Assembly (NCBI RefSeq): GCF_006717095.1
Contig: NZ_VFQE01000001.1
Span: forward strand, 1,860,001 to 1,924,000
DNA: 64,000 nucleotides
Direction of reading: 5' to 3'
From: Blastococcus colisei
Lineage (GTDB): Bacteria > Actinomycetota > Actinomycetes > Mycobacteriales > Geodermatophilaceae
The position numbers and the translations under genes were made by a program. The notes under the pieces were generated by a model. The model saw only the letters and a list, made by a program, of their open reading frames with translations, searched no databases and was not told where the DNA came from. Below, in pieces: positions 9,167 through 46,809 of this stretch; the first letter of the stretch is position 1; every line of letters starts with the position of its first letter.

Positions 9167-10738
9167 TCACGCAGGGCAGGTGAGTCCGTCCATCGGCACG
9201 ACGAGGTCGATGAGGTAGGCGTTGACCGCCGCGGTCACGCAGTCGGTCTTGGGATAGGCGGTGTGGCCCTGCCCCTGCCAGGTCAGCAGGGCGGCGGACT
9301 CGAGGTCCTCGGCGAGGTCGACCGCGCCCGGGAGCGGGGTCACCGGGTCGCCGGAGGTGCCGATCACCAGGATCGGCGCGCTGCCGTCGGCGTCCCGCTC
9401 CGGCAGCGGCGTGCGCTCGGCATCCCACAGCGAGCAGGTGTAGAGCCCGATCGCCGAGCCGGCGCCGAACAGCGGGTACTGCGCGTTCCACTCCGCGGCG
9501 AGCTCGCGGATCTCGCTCTCCTCGAACTGCTCCTCCCGGTCGGCGCAGTTGATCGCGATGTTGGCGTCGAAGAGGTTGGAGTAGGTGCCGTCCTCCAGGC
9601 GCCCGGAGTAGCTGTCGGCGAGGGAGAACAGGCCCTTCGAGTCGCCGGCCTGCGCGGCGGCGAGTGCCTGGGCGAGCTGCGGCCAGGACTCGGTGCCGGT
9701 GAGGCCGGCCCGGATCGCCGTCAGCACCACACCCGGTGTGGCCTGCCGGGTCTCCCCGGGCTCGCTGCTGGGGATCGGCGCGGCCGCGGCCTGGGTCAGC
9801 ACCTGCTCGACGAACTGCCGGGGCTCCGCGCCGAGCGGGCAGCCGGCCAGCAGCCCCACGCAGTTCGCGGCGAAGGCGTCGAAGCCGGCCTCCAGGCCGG
9901 CTGCCCGCTCCTCGGCGTTCGCGCGCAGGTCGGTGTCGGGGTCGACGGCGGCGTCGAGCACCATGGCGCGGACGTTCTCGGGGAACAGTTCGGCGTACGT
10001 CGAGCCGAGGGTGGTGCCGTACGAGTAGCCCAGGTAGGTCAGCTGCTCGTCGCCGAGCGCCTCGCGCAGCCGGTCCAGGTCCCGGGCGCTGTCGACGGTG
10101 TTGAACGTGCCCAGGGCGTCGCCGTACTCCTCGGCGCATCCGTCGGCGATCTTCTGGGCGAAGGCGAACGCGGCGTCGAGGTCCTCGTCGCTCACCGGGC
10201 GCGGCTCTGCGGCGACCATCTCGTCGTGGCGCTCGTCGGGGATGCACTCGACGGGGGTGGAGAGACCCACGCCCCGCGGGTCGAAGCCGACGATGTCGAA
10301 GCGGGCGAGGATCTCCTCGGGCAGCGTGAGCGCGAGGCCGATGGCGGCGTCGGCGCCGGAGGCGCCCGGCCCGCCGGGGTTGACCATGAGTGAGCCGATG
10401 CGGTCGGTCTGGGTGCCGCTGACGACGCGGACCCCGAACAGCGGCAGCGTCGCGCCCTGCGGCTCGTCGTAGCTGATCGGCACCTCGGTCCGGCCGCAGT
10501 CGAACGAGAGGTCCCGGTCGCTGCCCGACCGGCCGGCCACGATCGTCTGGATCTGCTCGTTGCAGTCGGTCCACTCGATGGGCGCGGCCTCGGGCTCCGG
10601 AGCGGCCGAGGTGGTCGCCGCGGCCTCTTCCCCGGCCGAGCCCCCGACCGAGTCGGAGAACGACGTGCAGCCGGCCAGGACCAGGCTCACAGCGAGCAGG
10701 GTCGACGGGACGGCCAGCCGGCCGCGGTGCAGATGCAT
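9167..10738 (-). CDS. Secreted lipoprotein alpha/beta hydrolase, TAP-like (tripeptidyl aminopeptidase type)
   Basis: A 523-residue exported hydrolase. The start at 10738 gives a short basic N-terminus, a hydrophobic segment and a lipobox LAGC, so it is probably lipid-anchored. Alpha/beta hydrolase features are NPGGPGASG (oxyanion region), FDPRGVG, the nucleophile elbow GYSYG, a C-terminal TAP-like segment with GTSGDPVTP (Asp), and GQGHTAYPKTDC (His). Related actinobacterial proteins are tripeptidyl aminopeptidases or esterases. It is placed between two DNA end-joining genes without obvious functional connection. Confidence 0.9.
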   Translation of the reverse strand: MHLHRGRLAVPSTLLAVSLVLAGCTSFSDSVGGSAGEEAAATTSAAPEPEAAPIEWTDCNEQIQTIVAGRSGSDRDLSFDCGRTEVPISYDEPQGATLPLFGVRVVSGTQTDRIGSLMVNPGGPGASGADAAIGLALTLPEEILARFDIVGFDPRGVGLSTPVECIPDERHDEMVAAEPRPVSDEDLDAAFAFAQKIADGCAEEYGDALGTFNTVDSARDLDRLREALGDEQLTYLGYSYGTTLGSTYAELFPENVRAMVLDAAVDPDTDLRANAEERAAGLEAGFDAFAANCVGLLAGCPLGAEPRQFVEQVLTQAAAAPIPSSEPGETRQATPGVVLTAIRAGLTGTESWPQLAQALAAAQAGDSKGLFSLADSYSGRLEDGTYSNLFDANIAINCADREEQFEESEIRELAAEWNAQYPLFGAGSAIGLYTCSLWDAERTPLPERDADGSAPILVIGTSGDPVTPLPGAVDLAEDLESAALLTWQGQGHTAYPKTDCVTAAVNAYLIDLVVPMDGLTCPA

Positions 10739-21807: not shown

Positions 21808-23915
21808 AGCGCGGGGCCGGTGAGGACGACGATCGAGCGCCCCTGCACCGTGACCGTGTCGCCCGGCTTGACCTCGACGGGCTCGACCTCGTTCATCTCC
21901 GCCGTGTCCAGGACCGTCGTCCAGTTCTGGCAGTAGTCGTCGCTGGGCAGCGTGAAGTCGAGTGGCTCGTGCGAGGCGTTGTACGCCAGGAAGAAGTGGT
22001 CGTCGGTGACGTACTCGCCGCGCTCGTCCATCTCCCGGATGCCGACGCCGTTGAGGTACACGGCCAGCGACTTGGCGTAGGCGGCGTCCCAGTCGTCCTC
22101 CGTCATCTCCTCGCCCGCGGGCGTCAGCCAGGCGATGTCCGGCACGGGATCGCCGAGTCCTCGGCGGACCGGACGGCCGTGGAAGAACCGGCGACGGCGG
22201 AACGTCGGGTGTTCGCTGCGGAGCTTGGTGACGGCCTTGGTGAACTCGAGCAGGCCCTCGTCGACGTTCTCCCAGTCGATCCAGGTGAGCTCGGAGTCCT
22301 GGCAGTAGCCGTTGTTGTTGCCGCCCTGCGACCGCCCCAGCTCGTCGCCGTGCAGCAGCATCGGCACCCCCTGGCTGAGCATCAGCGTGGTGATGAAGTT
22401 GCGGCGCTGCTGCGCCCGCAGCTGCAGGATCTCCGGGTCGTCGGTCTTCCCCTCGACCCCGCAGTTCCAGCTGCGGTTGTGGCTCTCGCCGTCGTTGTTG
22501 TCCTCGCCGTTGGCCTCGTTGTGCTTCTCGTTGTAGGAGACGAGGTCGTTGAGGGTGAAGCCGTCGTGCGCGGTGACGAAGTTGATGCTTGCCATCGGAC
22601 GGCGCCCCGAGTGCTGGTAGAGGTCCGACGACCCGGAGATCCGGTCGGCGAACTCACCGATCGTCCCGCCCTCGCCCCGCCAGAAGTCGCGGACCGTGTC
22701 GCGGTACTTGCCGTTCCACTCGGTCCAGAGCGCCGGGAAGTTGCCCACCTGGTAGCCGCCCTCGCCGACGTCCCACGGCTCGGCGATGAGCTTGACCTGA
22801 CTGATGATCGGGTCCTGGTGCACCAGGTCGAAGAACGCAGCCAGCCGGTCGACGGCGTGCAGCTCGCGGGCCAGGGTGGAGGCGAGGTCGAAGCGGAAAC
22901 CGTCGACGTGCATCTCGGTGATCCAGTAGCGCAGCGAGTCCATGATCAGCTGCAGCGACTGAGGCGTCCGGACGTTGAGCGTGTTCCCGGTACCGGTGTA
23001 GTCCATGTAGTACTGCTTGTCGTCCTCGACCAGCCGGTAGTAGGCCTGGTTGTCGATGCCCTTGAACGACAGCGTCGGACCGAGGTGGTTGCCCTCGGCG
23101 GTGTGGTTGTAGACGACGTCGAGGATGACCTCGATGCCGGCCTCGTGCAGGGTCCGCACCATCCCCTTGAACTCCTGCACCTGCTGACCCGCCGTGGTGT
23201 CGCTGGCGTACTCGTCGTGCGGCGCGAAGAAGCCGATCGTGTTGTAGCCCCAGTAGTTGCGCAGGCCCTTCTGCTGCAGGGTGTCGTCCTGCACGAACCG
23301 GTGCACCGGCATGAGCTCGATCGCGGTGACCCCCAGCTCGGTGAGGTGCTCGATGATCGCCGGGTGCGCGATGGCTGCGTAGGTGCCGCGCAACTCCTCC
23401 GGGATCCGCGGATGGGTCATCGTCAGGCCCTTGACGTGGGCCTCGTAGATGACCGTCTTGTTGTACGGCGTCTTCGGCGGGCGGTCGACGCCCCAGTCGA
23501 AGTACGGGTTGACGACGACGGACTTCGGCATGTGCGGTGCCGAGTCCTCGTCGTTGCGCTCCTTGGTCTCGAAGTCGTAGCCGAAGACCGACGGGTGCCA
23601 GGCGATCTGGCCGTCGATCGCCTTGGCGTACGGGTCGAGCAGCAGCTTGTTCGGGTTGCAGCGCTGGCCCTCGGCGGGGTCGTAGGGGCCGTGCACCCGG
23701 AAGCCGTAGCGCTGGCCGGGATGGATGCCGGGGAGGAAGGCGTGCCAGACGTACCCGTCCATCTCGGGGAGGCGGATGCGCTCCTCGTTCCCCGCTTCGT
23801 CGAAGAGGCACAGCTCGACCTTCTCGGCGACCTCGCTGAAGATCGCGAAGTTGGTGCCGGTGCCGTCGTACGTGGCCCCGACGGGGTAGGCACTGCCGGG
23901 CCAGACCTGGGTCAT
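21804..23915 (-). CDS. treX: Glycogen debranching enzyme TreX (GlgX-type)
   Basis: A 703-residue GH13 isoamylase-type debranching enzyme that trims alpha-1,6 branches to supply linear glucans to TreY. An N-terminal CBM48 (residues about 10-100) precedes the barrel with Asp in GFRFDLAST, Glu in LIAEPWDVG and Asp in TAHDGFTLND. The start MTQVWPGSAYPVGATYDG matches homologues, and AGGAGGAA lies 9 nt upstream of this ATG (23915). First gene of treX-treY. Confidence 0.95.
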   Translation of the reverse strand: MTQVWPGSAYPVGATYDGTGTNFAIFSEVAEKVELCLFDEAGNEERIRLPEMDGYVWHAFLPGIHPGQRYGFRVHGPYDPAEGQRCNPNKLLLDPYAKAIDGQIAWHPSVFGYDFETKERNDEDSAPHMPKSVVVNPYFDWGVDRPPKTPYNKTVIYEAHVKGLTMTHPRIPEELRGTYAAIAHPAIIEHLTELGVTAIELMPVHRFVQDDTLQQKGLRNYWGYNTIGFFAPHDEYASDTTAGQQVQEFKGMVRTLHEAGIEVILDVVYNHTAEGNHLGPTLSFKGIDNQAYYRLVEDDKQYYMDYTGTGNTLNVRTPQSLQLIMDSLRYWITEMHVDGFRFDLASTLARELHAVDRLAAFFDLVHQDPIISQVKLIAEPWDVGEGGYQVGNFPALWTEWNGKYRDTVRDFWRGEGGTIGEFADRISGSSDLYQHSGRRPMASINFVTAHDGFTLNDLVSYNEKHNEANGEDNNDGESHNRSWNCGVEGKTDDPEILQLRAQQRRNFITTLMLSQGVPMLLHGDELGRSQGGNNNGYCQDSELTWIDWENVDEGLLEFTKAVTKLRSEHPTFRRRRFFHGRPVRRGLGDPVPDIAWLTPAGEEMTEDDWDAAYAKSLAVYLNGVGIREMDERGEYVTDDHFFLAYNASHEPLDFTLPSDDYCQNWTTVLDTAEMNEVEPVEVKPGDTVTVQGRSIVVLTGPAL

Positions 23916-43645: not shown

Positions 43646-43682
43646 CCGGTCGTCTGACCCGGGCCTCAGGTCAGGCGACCGG
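43646..43682. terminator. Strong terminator hairpin shared by uvrA and the RT-coupled gene
   Basis: CCGGTCGTCTGACC (43646-43659) and GGTCAGGCGACCGG (43669-43682) form a 14-bp stem with one G-T wobble and a 9-nt loop. It is 6 nt after the uvrA stop, and the right arm includes the stop codon (43671-43673) of the convergent gene. Confidence 0.65.
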
Positions 43683-44195
43683 CTGCGGCCGGTACGGGGG
43701 CCGTTGGTCGACGACGTCGACGAGCGTCGCGGCCCACGGTTCCGGCACCCGGCCGGCGCCCACGCCGGCGGCCACCGTCGCCAACGCCTGCGCCGCGGCG
43801 TCCGCCCCGGTGATCTGCCACCGGGCCCATCGCCGGATACGGCCGCGCGCCACGAGCTCCACCTCCCAGGTCTCCGACCGCGGCGTCCGGAGGTGGGCGA
43901 TCGCCTCGCCGACGAGCCGGACGGCGTGACCGACGGCCCACGGGGCGGTCCCCTGCCGCATCGGGGTGTCACGGAACTCCGCGAACGTCGCTTGCATCTC
44001 GACGTCGGCCGTGTCGGCAGGCAGACGCCAGTCGCCGGTGCCCCCGGCGACCGCCGGAGCGGGTAGCCGGGACAGTGCCGCGGTCAGCCGACGCCGGAGG
44101 GACTCCTCCTCCGGGCCCGGTCGCGGCGGTGGCGTGCCGGTCCCGCGCAGCTGCCGTGCGCGTACCGTCCAGCGGACACCGAATCCGTCGGTCAC
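43671..44195 (-). CDS. Unknown 174-residue protein translationally coupled to the reverse transcriptase
   Basis: The GTG at 44195 overlaps the RT stop by 4 nt (GTGA), so the two proteins are made together. The protein is soluble, basic and Arg/Pro-rich at the N-terminus, with a middle and C-terminal part that looks like mixed alpha/beta (VEMQATFAEFRDTP, WEVELVARGRIRRWARWQITGADAAAQALATVAAG). No family was recognised, and there is no transmembrane segment. Position suggests an accessory or effector component of the retron-like unit. The frame is open further upstream to 44366 inside the RT gene, but the coupled GTG is the sensible start. Confidence 0.7.
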   Translation of the reverse strand: MTDGFGVRWTVRARQLRGTGTPPPRPGPEEESLRRRLTAALSRLPAPAVAGGTGDWRLPADTADVEMQATFAEFRDTPMRQGTAPWAVGHAVRLVGEAIAHLRTPRSETWEVELVARGRIRRWARWQITGADAAAQALATVAAGVGAGRVPEPWAATLVDVVDQRPPYRPQPVA

Positions 44196-45613
44196 CGTTC
44201 TCCGCACCGCGCCCCTCCGTCGTCGTCCGGAGGGGGAAGCGTGCCATCGGACGGCCGGTCCGCGGGCGTCCGTCCACAGGCGCCCTCGTCCGGCCTGGAC
44301 CAGTCGATCAGCGCGGCCCGCGCGCGCAGTCGAGCGCCGAAGGCTGGGTCGATCGAGGACGCCCACGCCACCCGGCCGAGCACGTGGTCGCGGAAGGTCG
44401 CCGGATCGCGGTCCCGGACCTGGCTGGCCCAGCCGCGCGTCGCGCAGTTGTGCAGCAGCGCCCGCAGCGCATCCCGCTCCGTGCGCGGCAGGGTGGGACG
44501 GACGTTCACCACCGTCCCGAGCACGGACTGGCGGCCGGCCGACGACGTCGACCGGGTCTTCGAACGGTTCAGCCGGAAGCCCTCCTCGACGACGATCTCA
44601 CCGGCCAGCCGTTCGAACGGGCCCTGATCGATCCCCCGACCGCCACTGAAGGTCAGGTCGTCCACGTACCGGGTGTAGGCAGCCCCGAACGAGGCCGCCA
44701 GTCCGCCGAGGCGTCGGTCCAGCCGGAAGCACACGAGGTTGGCCAGCGCCGGCGAGGTGGGCGCTCCCTGGGGGAGATGCGGGCCCGCCAGCCGTCGGCC
44801 GAGCCGGTGGTGCCGGTCGACGTCGTCCGGCACGGGGACCCGCCGCCAGGTCGACCGCGGCACCACGGTGGTCACCAGGCCGGTGACCGCGAGCGCGACC
44901 GGCTCCGGGAGTCCGCCCACCGACCGCAGCAGTCCGTGCACCCGCTCCGCGGCGATGCTCGCGAAGAACGACTCCAGGTCCATCTGCAGCACCTGGGCGG
45001 CCCCGGTGTGCGGGGTCACCGCCGTCCGCACCGAGCGCCCGGGCACGCACCCGTGCGCCGCCCCGTGCACCCGCAGCGGCCCGATCACGTACCGCAGGAG
45101 CCGTCGCTGGATCTCCTTCAGGCGGGACTTGGGCGCCGCCAGCAGCCGGTCGCCGTCCGTCGTCCACCGGTAGTGCCGCAGCGGCTCGGCCACGGTGCGT
45201 TCCAGCCGGTGGGTGTCGGCGAACCAGGCCAGCTCGCCGGCGTCCACGTCGAGCAGGCGGGCCAGCGCCGTCAGGTCCGGCAACGCGGCCACGCCGTACG
45301 GGCGGTGGACGACGTCGGTCCGAGCCGGCTGCCAGCGGGTGATCCGGGGCTGCGGCACGACGGTCCACCCGCGCGCCCAGCCCGCAGTCGTCCGGACGAA
45401 TCCGGCGAGCTCCCGCGGCCGGTCCACCGGCGGGTCCCGGTAGGCATCGAGCACCTCACCGACCAACGTGCCCACCCATCGCGGAGCCCGGTCCCGGCCG
45501 AGGGCGACCGCCGTCCGACGGACCATCTCCGGCCGTCGCCACCGGCCCGCCAGCAGGGCGGTCGCGATGCCCGCTGCGGTTCCGGCGGCTCGTCGCTCGG
45601 AGGGCGCCGTCAC
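44192..45613 (-). CDS. Retron-like reverse transcriptase
   Basis: A 473-residue RT. The N-terminal about 150 residues are Arg/Ala-rich and not recognised. The RT core begins PKSRLKEIQRRLL (161-173), then GRSVRT..TPHTG (192-204), MDLESFFASI with catalytic Asp211-212 region (211-220), LPQGAPTSPALANL (280-293) and the YVDD active site (316-319) followed by LTFS. After the core, VLGTVVNVRPTLPRTERDALRALLHN (364-389) aligns with the VTGLVVN...R..LRA.LHN region of retron RTs. The retron NAxxH and VTG motifs are diverged (AVTPH; VLG). GTG start just after a hairpin array. Inserted between uvrA and uvrC on the opposite strand. Confidence 0.85.
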   Translation of the reverse strand: MTAPSERRAAGTAAGIATALLAGRWRRPEMVRRTAVALGRDRAPRWVGTLVGEVLDAYRDPPVDRPRELAGFVRTTAGWARGWTVVPQPRITRWQPARTDVVHRPYGVAALPDLTALARLLDVDAGELAWFADTHRLERTVAEPLRHYRWTTDGDRLLAAPKSRLKEIQRRLLRYVIGPLRVHGAAHGCVPGRSVRTAVTPHTGAAQVLQMDLESFFASIAAERVHGLLRSVGGLPEPVALAVTGLVTTVVPRSTWRRVPVPDDVDRHHRLGRRLAGPHLPQGAPTSPALANLVCFRLDRRLGGLAASFGAAYTRYVDDLTFSGGRGIDQGPFERLAGEIVVEEGFRLNRSKTRSTSSAGRQSVLGTVVNVRPTLPRTERDALRALLHNCATRGWASQVRDRDPATFRDHVLGRVAWASSIDPAFGARLRARAALIDWSRPDEGACGRTPADRPSDGTLPPPDDDGGARCGER

Positions 45614-45620
45614 GAGGGGA

Positions 45621-45780
45621 GTGCGCGCCGGGACGGGCAGCCGGCCCCTGAACGAGGCGCCATCAGGTGCGCGGAGCGCACGGCCTGGCGGTTGACGAGA
45701 TGTTCGGGAACAGTGCGATCCCCGGGGTTTCCCCGGGAGAACCGGTCCTCACCGGTCGTCCTGCCCGCCCCGTCGCGCAC
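45621..45780 (-). ncRNA. Candidate retron-type structured ncRNA (msr-msd-like)
   Basis: On the RT-sense strand, a 20-nt arm (45780-45761) pairs with a 20-nt arm (45640-45621) at 18 Watson-Crick positions plus one G-U, like retron a1/a2 repeats. Between them, in order: hairpin ACCGGT-GAGG-ACCGGT (45756-45741), hairpin CCCGGGG-AAA-CCCCGGG (45737-45721), a short TGTTC/GAACA palindrome (45712-45701), and a larger hairpin (45690-45658) with a 5-bp lower stem, 4x4 internal loop and GTGCGC-TCC-GCGCAC tip. The 3' arm ends 7 nt before the RT GTG. Layout fits msr (short stem-loops) then msd (larger hairpin) then RT. The msd-like hairpin is short for a retron. Confidence 0.55.
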
Positions 45781-45882
45781 CCGGCCACCGTAGGGGGTCC
45801 CCACCGCGGCCGGCAGCCGGCTTGACCGGGACCTCTCCTGGCGGTACTCCGAGTGGACACCGACGGCTGGGAGGAACGCGCG

Positions 45883-46809
45883 ATGACGACGAGGTCCGAG
45901 GACGGGAAGCTCCAGAGACCGGACGGATCCCGGGTGCACTACCGCCGCTGGCTCCCGGACGGCGACGTGCGGGGGACCGTCCATGTCGTGCACGGGGCCT
46001 CGGAGCACTCGGGCCGCTACAGCCGGCTGGCCGGGGCGCTCACCGCCCGGGGCCTGGCGGTCTACGCGATGGACCTGCGCGGGCACGGCCGGACGGCGGA
46101 GAGCACCGGCATCGGCCGATTCGGTGGTCCCGGGGTGGACGCCGTCCTGGGCGACATCGAGGCGCTGCACCTGGTGATGGACGACCGCCACCCGGAGGTG
46201 CCGCGGGTGCTGCTGGGGCATTCGATGGGCTCGGTCATCGCCCTGGCCGGTGCCGAGCGGAACGGCGCCGACCTCGCCGGGCTCGTGCTGTCGGGCCCCA
46301 TCGGCGTGGCGCCGCACCTGGCCGCCAGCGTCGACGCGCTGGAGGAGGCGGTCGCCGCCGGCGCCGGGGACCACGCCCTCGACGCGCTCGGCGCGTTCAA
46401 CGCGTCGTTCGAGCCGGCCCGGACCCGGTACGACTGGCTCTCCCGCGACCCGGCGGAGGTGGACGCCTACATCGCCGATCCGCTGTGCGGGGACGAGATG
46501 CCGCTGACCGCCGCCTACGCGGCCGGGGTCTTCGCGCTGGCCGTGCGTGCCGCCACACCCGACGCGGTGGCCGCGCTGCCCGCCGGGCTGCCGGTCCTGC
46601 TGCTGTCCGGGGAACTGGACCCCGTCGGTGGGGCCGACGCCGTCCAGGTGACCGCCCTCGCGCAGCTGTTCGCGGCGCGCGGGCTCGCCGTCGAGCAGCA
46701 CGTCTACCCGGAGGCCCGGCACGAGGTCTTCAACGAGATCAACCGCGACGAGGTGGTCGGCGACCTCCTGGCCTGGCTGGAGCAGCGGGTGCCCGCCCTC
46801 GGCGGCTGA
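45883..46809 (+). CDS. Alpha/beta hydrolase, monoacylglycerol lipase-like
   Basis: A 308-residue hydrolase: HGASEHSGRYSRLA (oxyanion region), MDLRGHGRT, nucleophile elbow GHSMGS, late Asp in SGELDPVGG and His in EARHEVFNE. It resembles lysophospholipase/monoacylglycerol lipases of actinobacteria. GGAGGA lies 10 nt before the ATG at 45883; a GTG at 45853 is in frame. Divergent from the retron-like unit. Confidence 0.88.
   Translation: MTTRSEDGKLQRPDGSRVHYRRWLPDGDVRGTVHVVHGASEHSGRYSRLAGALTARGLAVYAMDLRGHGRTAESTGIGRFGGPGVDAVLGDIEALHLVMDDRHPEVPRVLLGHSMGSVIALAGAERNGADLAGLVLSGPIGVAPHLAASVDALEEAVAAGAGDHALDALGAFNASFEPARTRYDWLSRDPAEVDAYIADPLCGDEMPLTAAYAAGVFALAVRAATPDAVAALPAGLPVLLLSGELDPVGGADAVQVTALAQLFAARGLAVEQHVYPEARHEVFNEINRDEVVGDLLAWLEQRVPALGG

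What the first reader, a model, noticed from the sequence alone, without database searches (positions are those of the whole stretch)
45621..45780. Candidate msr-msd ncRNA upstream of the reverse transcriptase
The 160 nt before the RT carries a 20-nt inverted repeat pair (45761-45780 with 45621-45640) that has 18 Watson-Crick pairs. On the RT-sense strand one of the two mismatches becomes a G-U wobble; on the other strand it is A-C, so the fold favours the RT transcript. Inside lie three or four hairpins in the retron order: small stem-loops first, a larger hairpin last, then the closing arm 7 nt before the RT start. This is the msr-msd-RT layout. The sequence is not one I recognise from a described retron.
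Basis: partly seen in the sequence, partly recalled or inferred. Interest (0 to 1): 0.85.

Follow-up and report, generated by a model that had tools for sequence, protein, structure and literature searches.

The report
Retron without a linked effector gene
The stretch encodes a small folded RNA which, with the reverse transcriptase gene beside it, looks like a retron, a bacterial device that copies part of its own RNA into DNA; in this lineage RNA and enzyme seem to travel alone, without the usual neighbouring effector gene.

Summary
The arms are real (18 of 20 Watson-Crick, one G-U; unique in the window at that spacing). The RNA lies upstream of all 30 family RT loci aligned (the best 30 of 45 matches), with compensatory changes. 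A covariance model of it hits 37 of 112 family and 12 of 394 class genomes, always beside the RT or its remnant, and none of the 380 class genomes lacking an RT match; also 62 of 80 RT loci (E<=0.01) from several phyla. RT family, fold (best solved match retron Ec86) and RNA anatomy say retron. New here: no gene travels with the pair. Homology to ten loci in five other contexts ends at the conserved RT end and near the -10 box; neighbours recur only locally. No Rfam 15 family matches; PADLOC has the RT as 'RT_other/outgroup'. Best reading: an untyped, effector-less retron lineage making a DNA of at most about 80 nt. msDNA was not observed; function is inferred. The 177-aa ORF behind the RT is unlikely to be its partner.

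The parts
45787..45792 (-). -10-like promoter box TACGGT of the ncRNA/RT transcript; transcription start expected near 45780, at the first base of arm a1 (inferred)
   Evidence: CTA..GT-like box at this place in the aligned family loci. Mean column identity in 30 family loci, ungapped register: 0.41-0.55 further upstream, 0.61 in the block with this box (its spacing to a1 varies), 0.81-0.98 in a1. The homology block with 10 other loci ends at 45780-45799
45761..45780 (-). arm a1 (5' arm of the closing stem)
   Evidence: helix 1 has 18 consensus pairs, 7 of them with double changes
45760..45760 (-). predicted priming (branch) guanosine, first unpaired base after a1
   Evidence: G in 30 of 30 family sequences and in 56 of 62 wider sequences; position by analogy with PMC6868368 section 6; inferred
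45740..45757 (-). msr hairpin 1 (6 bp)
   Evidence: 100% of cells paired in 30 sequences
45720..45738 (-). msr hairpin 2 (8 bp, 3-nt loop, third loop base A)
   Evidence: loop A in 30/30 and 60/62
45641..45719 (-). predicted msd template region (about 80 nt between hairpin 2 and a2)
   Evidence: 79-80 nt in 30 family sequences, 74-91 nt in 62 wider ones; the exact ends of a DNA are not known
45659..45689 (-). two-part hairpin 3 inside the template region
   Evidence: 9 consensus pairs in the family; 12 pairs in the wider free alignment, 11 of them with double changes
45621..45640 (-). arm a2 (3' arm of the closing stem), ends 7 nt before the RT start
44192..45613 (-). retron-type reverse transcriptase, 473 aa, YVDD; residues 1 to about 110 are a helical N-terminal extension of no known family
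   Evidence: PADLOC RT_other 2.5e-151, RT_outgroup 1.8e-142; AlphaFold mean pLDDT 91.6; best PDB match retron Ec86, Foldseek E 2.4e-18; no NCBIfam and no convincing Pfam family for the N-terminus
44288..45799 (-). outer limits of the conserved unit (promoter box + ncRNA + RT up to about residue 441); left edge 44288-44300, right edge 45780-45799
   Evidence: blastn of the window against 10 loci in five other genomic contexts; G002 site without the cassette

Best explanation
It is a retron: a msr-msd RNA of about 161 nt followed by its own reverse transcriptase, in a lineage that carries no linked effector gene. Likely working: one transcript starts at a1; a1 and a2 pair; the RT recognises the small msr hairpins, uses the 2'-OH of the guanosine just inside a1 as primer, and copies the roughly 80-nt region before a2 into single-stranded DNA, stopping near hairpin 2, so that an RNA-DNA-RT complex forms. 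Shown: the RNA structure by covariation, its coupling to the RT, the retron identity of the RT, and that no partner gene travels with the pair in the loci examined. Inferred: priming, the DNA product and its ends. Least certain is the role: most likely phage defence, with sensor and response inside the RT-RNA-DNA particle (its N-terminal helical domain included) or with an unlinked host protein as effector.
For: Covariation: 30 sequences, MAFFT alignment; 26 divergent sequences chosen by hand, MAFFT alignment, 30 of 36 pairs with double changes; 62 sequences, alignment fitted to the model, covariation 0.636 against 0.159+-0.008 shuffled and at most 0.108 slid. Coupling: RNA model in 37 of 112 family genomes, one hit each, 36 just upstream of the RT and 1 (G040) beside RT pieces; 12 of 394 class genomes, all among the 14 with RT at E<=1e-40; 11 of 12 class RT loci at E<=1.5e-4; 62 of 80 genome contigs RT loci at E<=0.01 and 72 of 80 at E<=0.15. 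RT: (the first 18 PDB fold matches are all chains of retron structures). Anatomy fits PMC6868368 section 6 in most points. No partner.
Against: No msDNA or RNA data. Region X reads AVTPH instead of NAxxH and the region Y triplet is VLG instead of VTG (some distant relatives have VTG); both vary among retrons. The priming-site context (CAGGA) is not among those listed. The msd hairpin is short, near the lower limit. 8 of 44 RT-positive family genomes, 2 of 14 in the class sample and 8 of 80 genome-contig loci gave no RNA match in the searches; of the last 8, 3 show clear arms.
Confidence: 0.88

Rival explanations
1. A defence RT of the DRT kind (DRT2, DRT9), which uses a neighbouring ncRNA but makes repetitive or homopolymer DNA without the a1/a2-primed branched product.
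For: An RT with a neighbouring ncRNA and no retron-type effector is also described for DRT2 (start of the abstracts of PMC12039810 and PMC12483538, listing; DRT9 details are recalled).
Against: HMM scores: retron models down to 2.5e-151, Drt2 5.3e-7, 29.2 bits against a cut-off of 390. Fold: 18 retron chains rank first, DRT2 is at rank 20. The RNA has the retron closing stem with a nearly constant G just inside it.
Confidence: 0.04
2. A structured leader (attenuator or RT autoregulatory site) in the RT mRNA, not a template.
For: It lies 7 nt from the start codon and would be in the same transcript.
Against: Near-constant overall length (153-179 nt), a closing stem with a conserved G at its inner end and an inner segment of 74-91 nt are template-primer features, next to an RT of the retron family.
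Confidence: 0.04
3. An ordinary retron whose effector is a neighbour: the 177-aa ORF 43671-44204 that overlaps the RT end (4 nt GTGA if it starts at 44195), or another adjacent gene.
For: The overlap looks like an operon. In some actinobacterial relatives (Amycolatopsis, Crossiella, Kutzneria) a pentapeptide-repeat protein follows the RT, 7 of the 80 loci.
Against: Homologues of the 177-aa ORF occur in 10 of 112 family genomes, 6 of them without an RT match, and it was not found beside the RT of the two relatives in the genus. G002 has it at the same place without the cassette. Ten downstream genes, this ORF included, give unrelated families or none and no PADLOC hit. Largest neighbour cluster 9 of 80 loci, in mixed positions.
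Confidence: 0.05
4. Chance inverted repeat in G+C-rich DNA.
For: Single-sequence folding is only z -2.16.
Against: Covariation and RT coupling.
Confidence: 0.005

Closest known systems
Retron Ec86 (Eco1) and other solved retrons
   Same: RT fold (Foldseek E 2.4e-18, TM 0.80 on the target), closing a1/a2 stem, an msr element of 8 bp with a 3-base loop as described for Ec86 RT binding, RT behind msr-msd
   Different: N-terminal extension of about 110 residues, no linked effector, short two-part msd hairpin, another context of the priming G; no Rfam 15 family matches the RNA
PADLOC RT_other / RT_outgroup (the latter described as 'retron')
   Same: All 70 RTs scanned match both models, best E 9e-176 and 9.7e-167: same RT clade
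   Different: The models name a protein only; no ncRNA, partner or function came with them in these calls
Type XIII retrons (PADLOC RT_XIII)
   Same: Best typed RT model, E 2.1e-77, over residues 107-436
   Different: The match leaves out the N-terminal extension; no travelling partner genes here. The composition of type XIII is recalled, not looked up
'Standard' retron cassettes (msr-msd plus RT only)
   Same: Only msr-msd and RT; PMC6868368 says many validated cassettes are like this (section 8 and its figure legend)
   Different: Here the lack of a partner holds in most of the genera examined; whether those RTs belong to this clade was not tested

Membership tests
Retron (msr-msd-RT) | complementary 8-30 nt arms at the ends of the RNA, msr before msd, RT in the cassette | tested here: met
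   20-nt arms; 18 consensus pairs, 7 with double changes; RT 7 nt behind. The order msr-msd is read from the anatomy
Retron (msr-msd-RT) | 1-3 msr hairpins of about 7-10 bp with 3-10 nt loops | tested here: met
   Hairpins of 6 and 8 bp, loops of 6 and 3 nt in the window; the first is 1 bp short of the stated range
Retron (msr-msd-RT) | priming guanosine at the inner end of a1 in TAGC or a variant (CAGA, CAGC, GAGC, ACGC) | tested here: inconclusive
   A G just inside a1 in 30/30 and 56/62; context CAGGA in this family, often GAGA, GAGG, GAGC or AAGC elsewhere; priming itself not shown
Retron (msr-msd-RT) | msd forms a long (about 10-50 bp) imperfect hairpin | tested here: inconclusive
   Two-part hairpin of 9 to 12 pairs, at the lower limit
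Retron (msr-msd-RT) | RT of the retron clade by sequence and fold | tested here: met
   but below the cut-offs of the three NCBIfam retron models matched, which are subgroup models
Retron (msr-msd-RT) | region X NAxxH and region Y VTG | tested here: inconclusive
   AVTPH and VLG. Not strict in retrons: PMC4244168 reports VTG in 47% and, in a passage that was cut, a motif with A, N and H in 59% of its retron group
Retron (msr-msd-RT) | msDNA with 2'-5' RNA-DNA branch | not testable with these tools
   Needs extraction or sequencing
Typed tripartite retrons (I-XIII) | RT or a linked gene supplies a type-specific effector | tested here: not met
   No travelling neighbour and no fused known domain; therefore not filed under any type. 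The type scheme itself is recalled
DRT2-type defence RT | RT matches the model above its cut-off | tested here: not met
   Drt2 29.2 bits against 390

The most novel reading that the evidence does not exclude
A retron lineage found in several phyla that works without any dedicated effector: ncRNA, RT (with its helical N-terminal domain) and the DNA they make are the whole inherited unit, which is gained and lost as a 1.5-kb cassette, so sensing and response must lie in that particle or in a conserved host target.
Probability: 0.4. Interest if true: 0.75.

Novelty: new variant of a known kind. Interest (0 to 1): 0.52.

Why it matters
Retron defence is usually explained by an effector held in check by the RT-RNA-DNA complex (abstract of PMC12548924, listing). 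A lineage whose records are titled Actinomycetota genera, Acidobacteria, Planctomycetota, Myxococcales and Proteobacteria and that mostly keeps only RNA and RT makes the question 'what does a retron do without an effector' directly testable. It also gives a covariance model for an RNA that no Rfam 15 family matches, and compact (about 160 nt) RNA/RT pairs that may suit DNA production in high-G+C hosts.

Tried and rejected
Rejected: the 177-aa ORF as partner; neighbouring genes as effector of the whole lineage; DRT identity; a known Rfam family; chance repeat. Two other inverted repeats with >=18 of 20 matches exist in the window at gaps outside 120-145 nt: the one at 22424-22645 is inside a coding frame; the one at 9829-9914 was read but its frame was not checked.

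Led nowhere: viral contigs, no relative; phages (10 records) and plasmids (82 records), only matches under 60% identity, not pursued; nine literature searches in the held library showed no description of this RNA in listings or in the passages opened (PMC6868368, PMC12548924, PMC12262390, PMC8934634, PMC8565338, PMC9716671, PMC4244168). Mestre 2020, the retron census and a FEMS review are not held, so absence from print is not shown. The N-terminal domain could not be folded on its own. VIA-align was not available.

Dropped or chosen rows: A2 used the 30 best of 45 family RT matches; A4 used the 62 matches at E<=0.01 in 62 sources that I gave (52 of the 80 genome-contig loci and 10 of the 12 class loci); A5 used the window and the 69 RTs of 380-520 aa from the 80 loci; A6 used 26 sequences and A7 32, chosen by hand. 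In one search, 78 of 80 loci could be read. One search used 27 of the 30 family loci. A1 had wrong window ends and was replaced by A2.

Full report
1. Observation. The arms exist at the stated places: 18 Watson-Crick pairs, one G-U, one A-G in 20. No other 20-nt inverted repeat with >=18 matches at 120-145 nt spacing occurs in the window, and none in 20 first-order Markov replicates. Thermodynamics alone is weak (z -2.16; 3 of 200 shuffles as stable). Rfam 15 has no match at gathering scores in the window; with relaxed limits the three matches in 45300-46100 have E 0.81 to 4.9 and lie far below gathering.

2. The gene behind it. The ORF 44192-45613 (-), 473 aa, is a retron RT: PADLOC RT_other 2.5e-151 and RT_outgroup 1.8e-142, next RT_XIII 2.1e-77; Pfam RVT_1. 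Against this, it stays below the cut-offs of the three NCBIfam retron models that it matches. An AlphaFold model from 70 sequences (mean pLDDT 91.6) matches 18 chains of retron structures first (Ec86: E 2.4e-18, TM 0.80 on the target), then, after a gap to 2.9e-9, G2L4, DRT2 and group II RTs. Residues 1 to about 110 form helices; of 32 members scanned none matches NCBIfam and two Pfam models match one member each at E 0.0035 and 0.0078, probably by chance.

3. Relatives. The RT is found in 3 of 16 genomes of the genus (own included), 44 of 112 of the family (E<=1e-60) and 14 of 394 sampled from the class (E<=1e-40). The family is Geodermatophilaceae by inference: G048 and Geodermatophilus obscurus L074 share contig length and place.

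4. The RNA is conserved and covaries. Of 45 family matches the best 30 came as loci; all 30 carry the RNA (29 by arm search; L029 seen). On their MAFFT alignment RNAalifold gives 41 pairs, 9 with double changes. The counter gives 98.2% of cells paired and covariation 0.164 against 0.115+-0.004 in shuffles (0 of 500 as high) and at most 0.069 when slid; 'further pair types' is less striking (31 of 500 shuffles as high). On a free MAFFT alignment of 26 divergent RNAs chosen by hand, 30 of 36 predicted pairs show double changes. On the 62-sequence alignment fitted to the model, covariation is 0.636 against 0.159+-0.008, and RNAalifold's own fold of it has 41 pairs, 35 with double changes; fitting favours these last numbers.

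5. The RNA was not found without the RT. The model built from the family (R1) hits 37 of 112 family genomes, once each. By comparison of coordinates, 36 lie upstream of the RT on its strand; the 37th, G040, lies beside RT pieces that no longer form one frame. Eight RT-positive family genomes gave no RNA hit, seven of them with RTs of 44-48% identity. In the class sample 12 of 394 genomes hit, all among the 14 with RT; G175 and G322 were missed (in the locus search G175's RNA scores E 5.9e-7 and G322's E 1.3). Whole-genome searches used stricter filters that lose weak matches. In 80 genome contigs RT loci, 62 hit at E<=0.01 and 72 at E<=0.15, upstream of the RT on its strand; 9 further weak rows (E 0.052-0.81) in the same search are off target or on the other strand. 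Of the 8 misses, L106, L127 and L146 show clear arms 165-183 nt apart.

6. Anatomy against the definition. PMC6868368 section 6 (read) describes arms of about 8-30 nt, 1-3 msr hairpins, a priming G at the inner end of a1, and an msd hairpin of about 10-50 bp. Here: arms of 20; hairpins of 6 and 8 bp, the second with a 3-nt loop whose last base is A in 30/30 and 60/62 sequences; a G just inside a1 in 30/30 and 56/62; an inner segment of 74-91 nt with a two-part hairpin. The same section says Ec86 RT needs an 8-bp stem with a three-base loop, which hairpin 2 resembles. Deviations: context CAGGA at the priming site, AVTPH and VLG in the RT. PMC4244168 (passages) reports VTG in 47% of its retron group and a region X motif in 59%, so these do not exclude membership.

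7. What travels. blastn of the window with 10 loci, which fall into five other contexts by their shared neighbours, gives a single block each time in this region. It ends at 44288-44300, where the conserved RT ends (IDWS, about 44291; the window's own frame runs on for about 30 codons), and at 45780-45799, at or near the -10 box. Mean column identity in the 30 family loci is 0.41-0.55 upstream, 0.61 in the block with the -10 box, and 0.81-0.98 in a1. In the window the cassette sits between uvrA and uvrC (names). G002 has the same neighbours and the 177-aa ORF but no cassette; G014 and G015 have the cassette there without the ORF or the hydrolase gene. Of 27 loci compared, the own genus shows one site, g2 and g9 mainly one, g3 two or more. 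G091 of g9 carries an RT 79-80% identical to the window's in a context of its own, which suggests transfer. Several RT matches are broken or partial (for example G100 in two pieces; G040), which suggests a dispensable element, sequencing errors apart.

8. No partner. Across 16 loci with about 5.5 kb on each side, groups of three or more loci sharing a neighbour are those of one local site; beyond them there are only scattered two-locus matches. Across 80 loci with up to 3 kb, the largest cluster holds 9 loci, in mixed positions and orientations. Same-strand ORFs starting close behind the RT stop were found in 45 of 78 loci: one group of 6 (a pentapeptide-repeat protein), three of 2 and 33 singletons. 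Ten downstream genes are sulfite reductase-like, SDR, SelO, GH26, HAD, epimerase, PRC-barrel or, in three cases, the window's ORF included, without family; none matches PADLOC. The 177-aa ORF has homologues in 10 of 112 genomes, 6 of them without the RT. An unlinked effector was not searched for.

9. Reading. It is a retron by RNA, RT and their coupling. It fits no typed system, since a type-specific effector (recalled as the basis of the types) is not there; PADLOC's 'other/outgroup' is the same RT clade (70 of 70 members). I expect a branched DNA of at most about 80 nt from 45641-45719. Role: probably defence, by analogy with other retrons, not tested here; how it acts without a linked effector is open. 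Retrons drawn with msr-msd and RT only are known (PMC6868368 section 8), so the lack of a partner is not unique; that it holds in most of the many genera examined is the new point. Novelty is limited by papers that are not held.

Noticed in passing
L097, L119, L126, L130, L133, L135, L116 (downstream of the RT): In Amycolatopsis, Crossiella and Kutzneria relatives a pentapeptide-repeat protein (Pfam PF00805 in the two scanned) follows the RT on the same strand: 7 loci, 6 within about 80 nt, L116 about 0.5 kb away. It could be a clade-specific partner or shared synteny.
   Followed up: partly
window 43671-44204 (-): 177-aa ORF overlapping the RT end (GTGA if it starts at 44195), no Pfam or PADLOC family; homologues in 10 of 112 family genomes, 6 of them without the RT.
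   Followed up: yes
window 44192-44287: The last about 30 codons of this RT are not shared with relatives; this stretch matches DNA of the cassette-free site of G002, so the RT frame seems to run on into older flanking DNA.
   Followed up: partly
L086: A contig titled Vibrio cholerae strain 35D carries this RT and RNA and falls in one neighbour cluster with Arthrobacter loci L091, L093 and L095; possibly a mislabelled or contaminated record.
   Followed up: no
L154 (G040), L029/L074 (G048), G100, G104, G042, G047: RNA kept beside broken or partial RT frames; either sequencing errors or decaying cassettes.
   Followed up: partly
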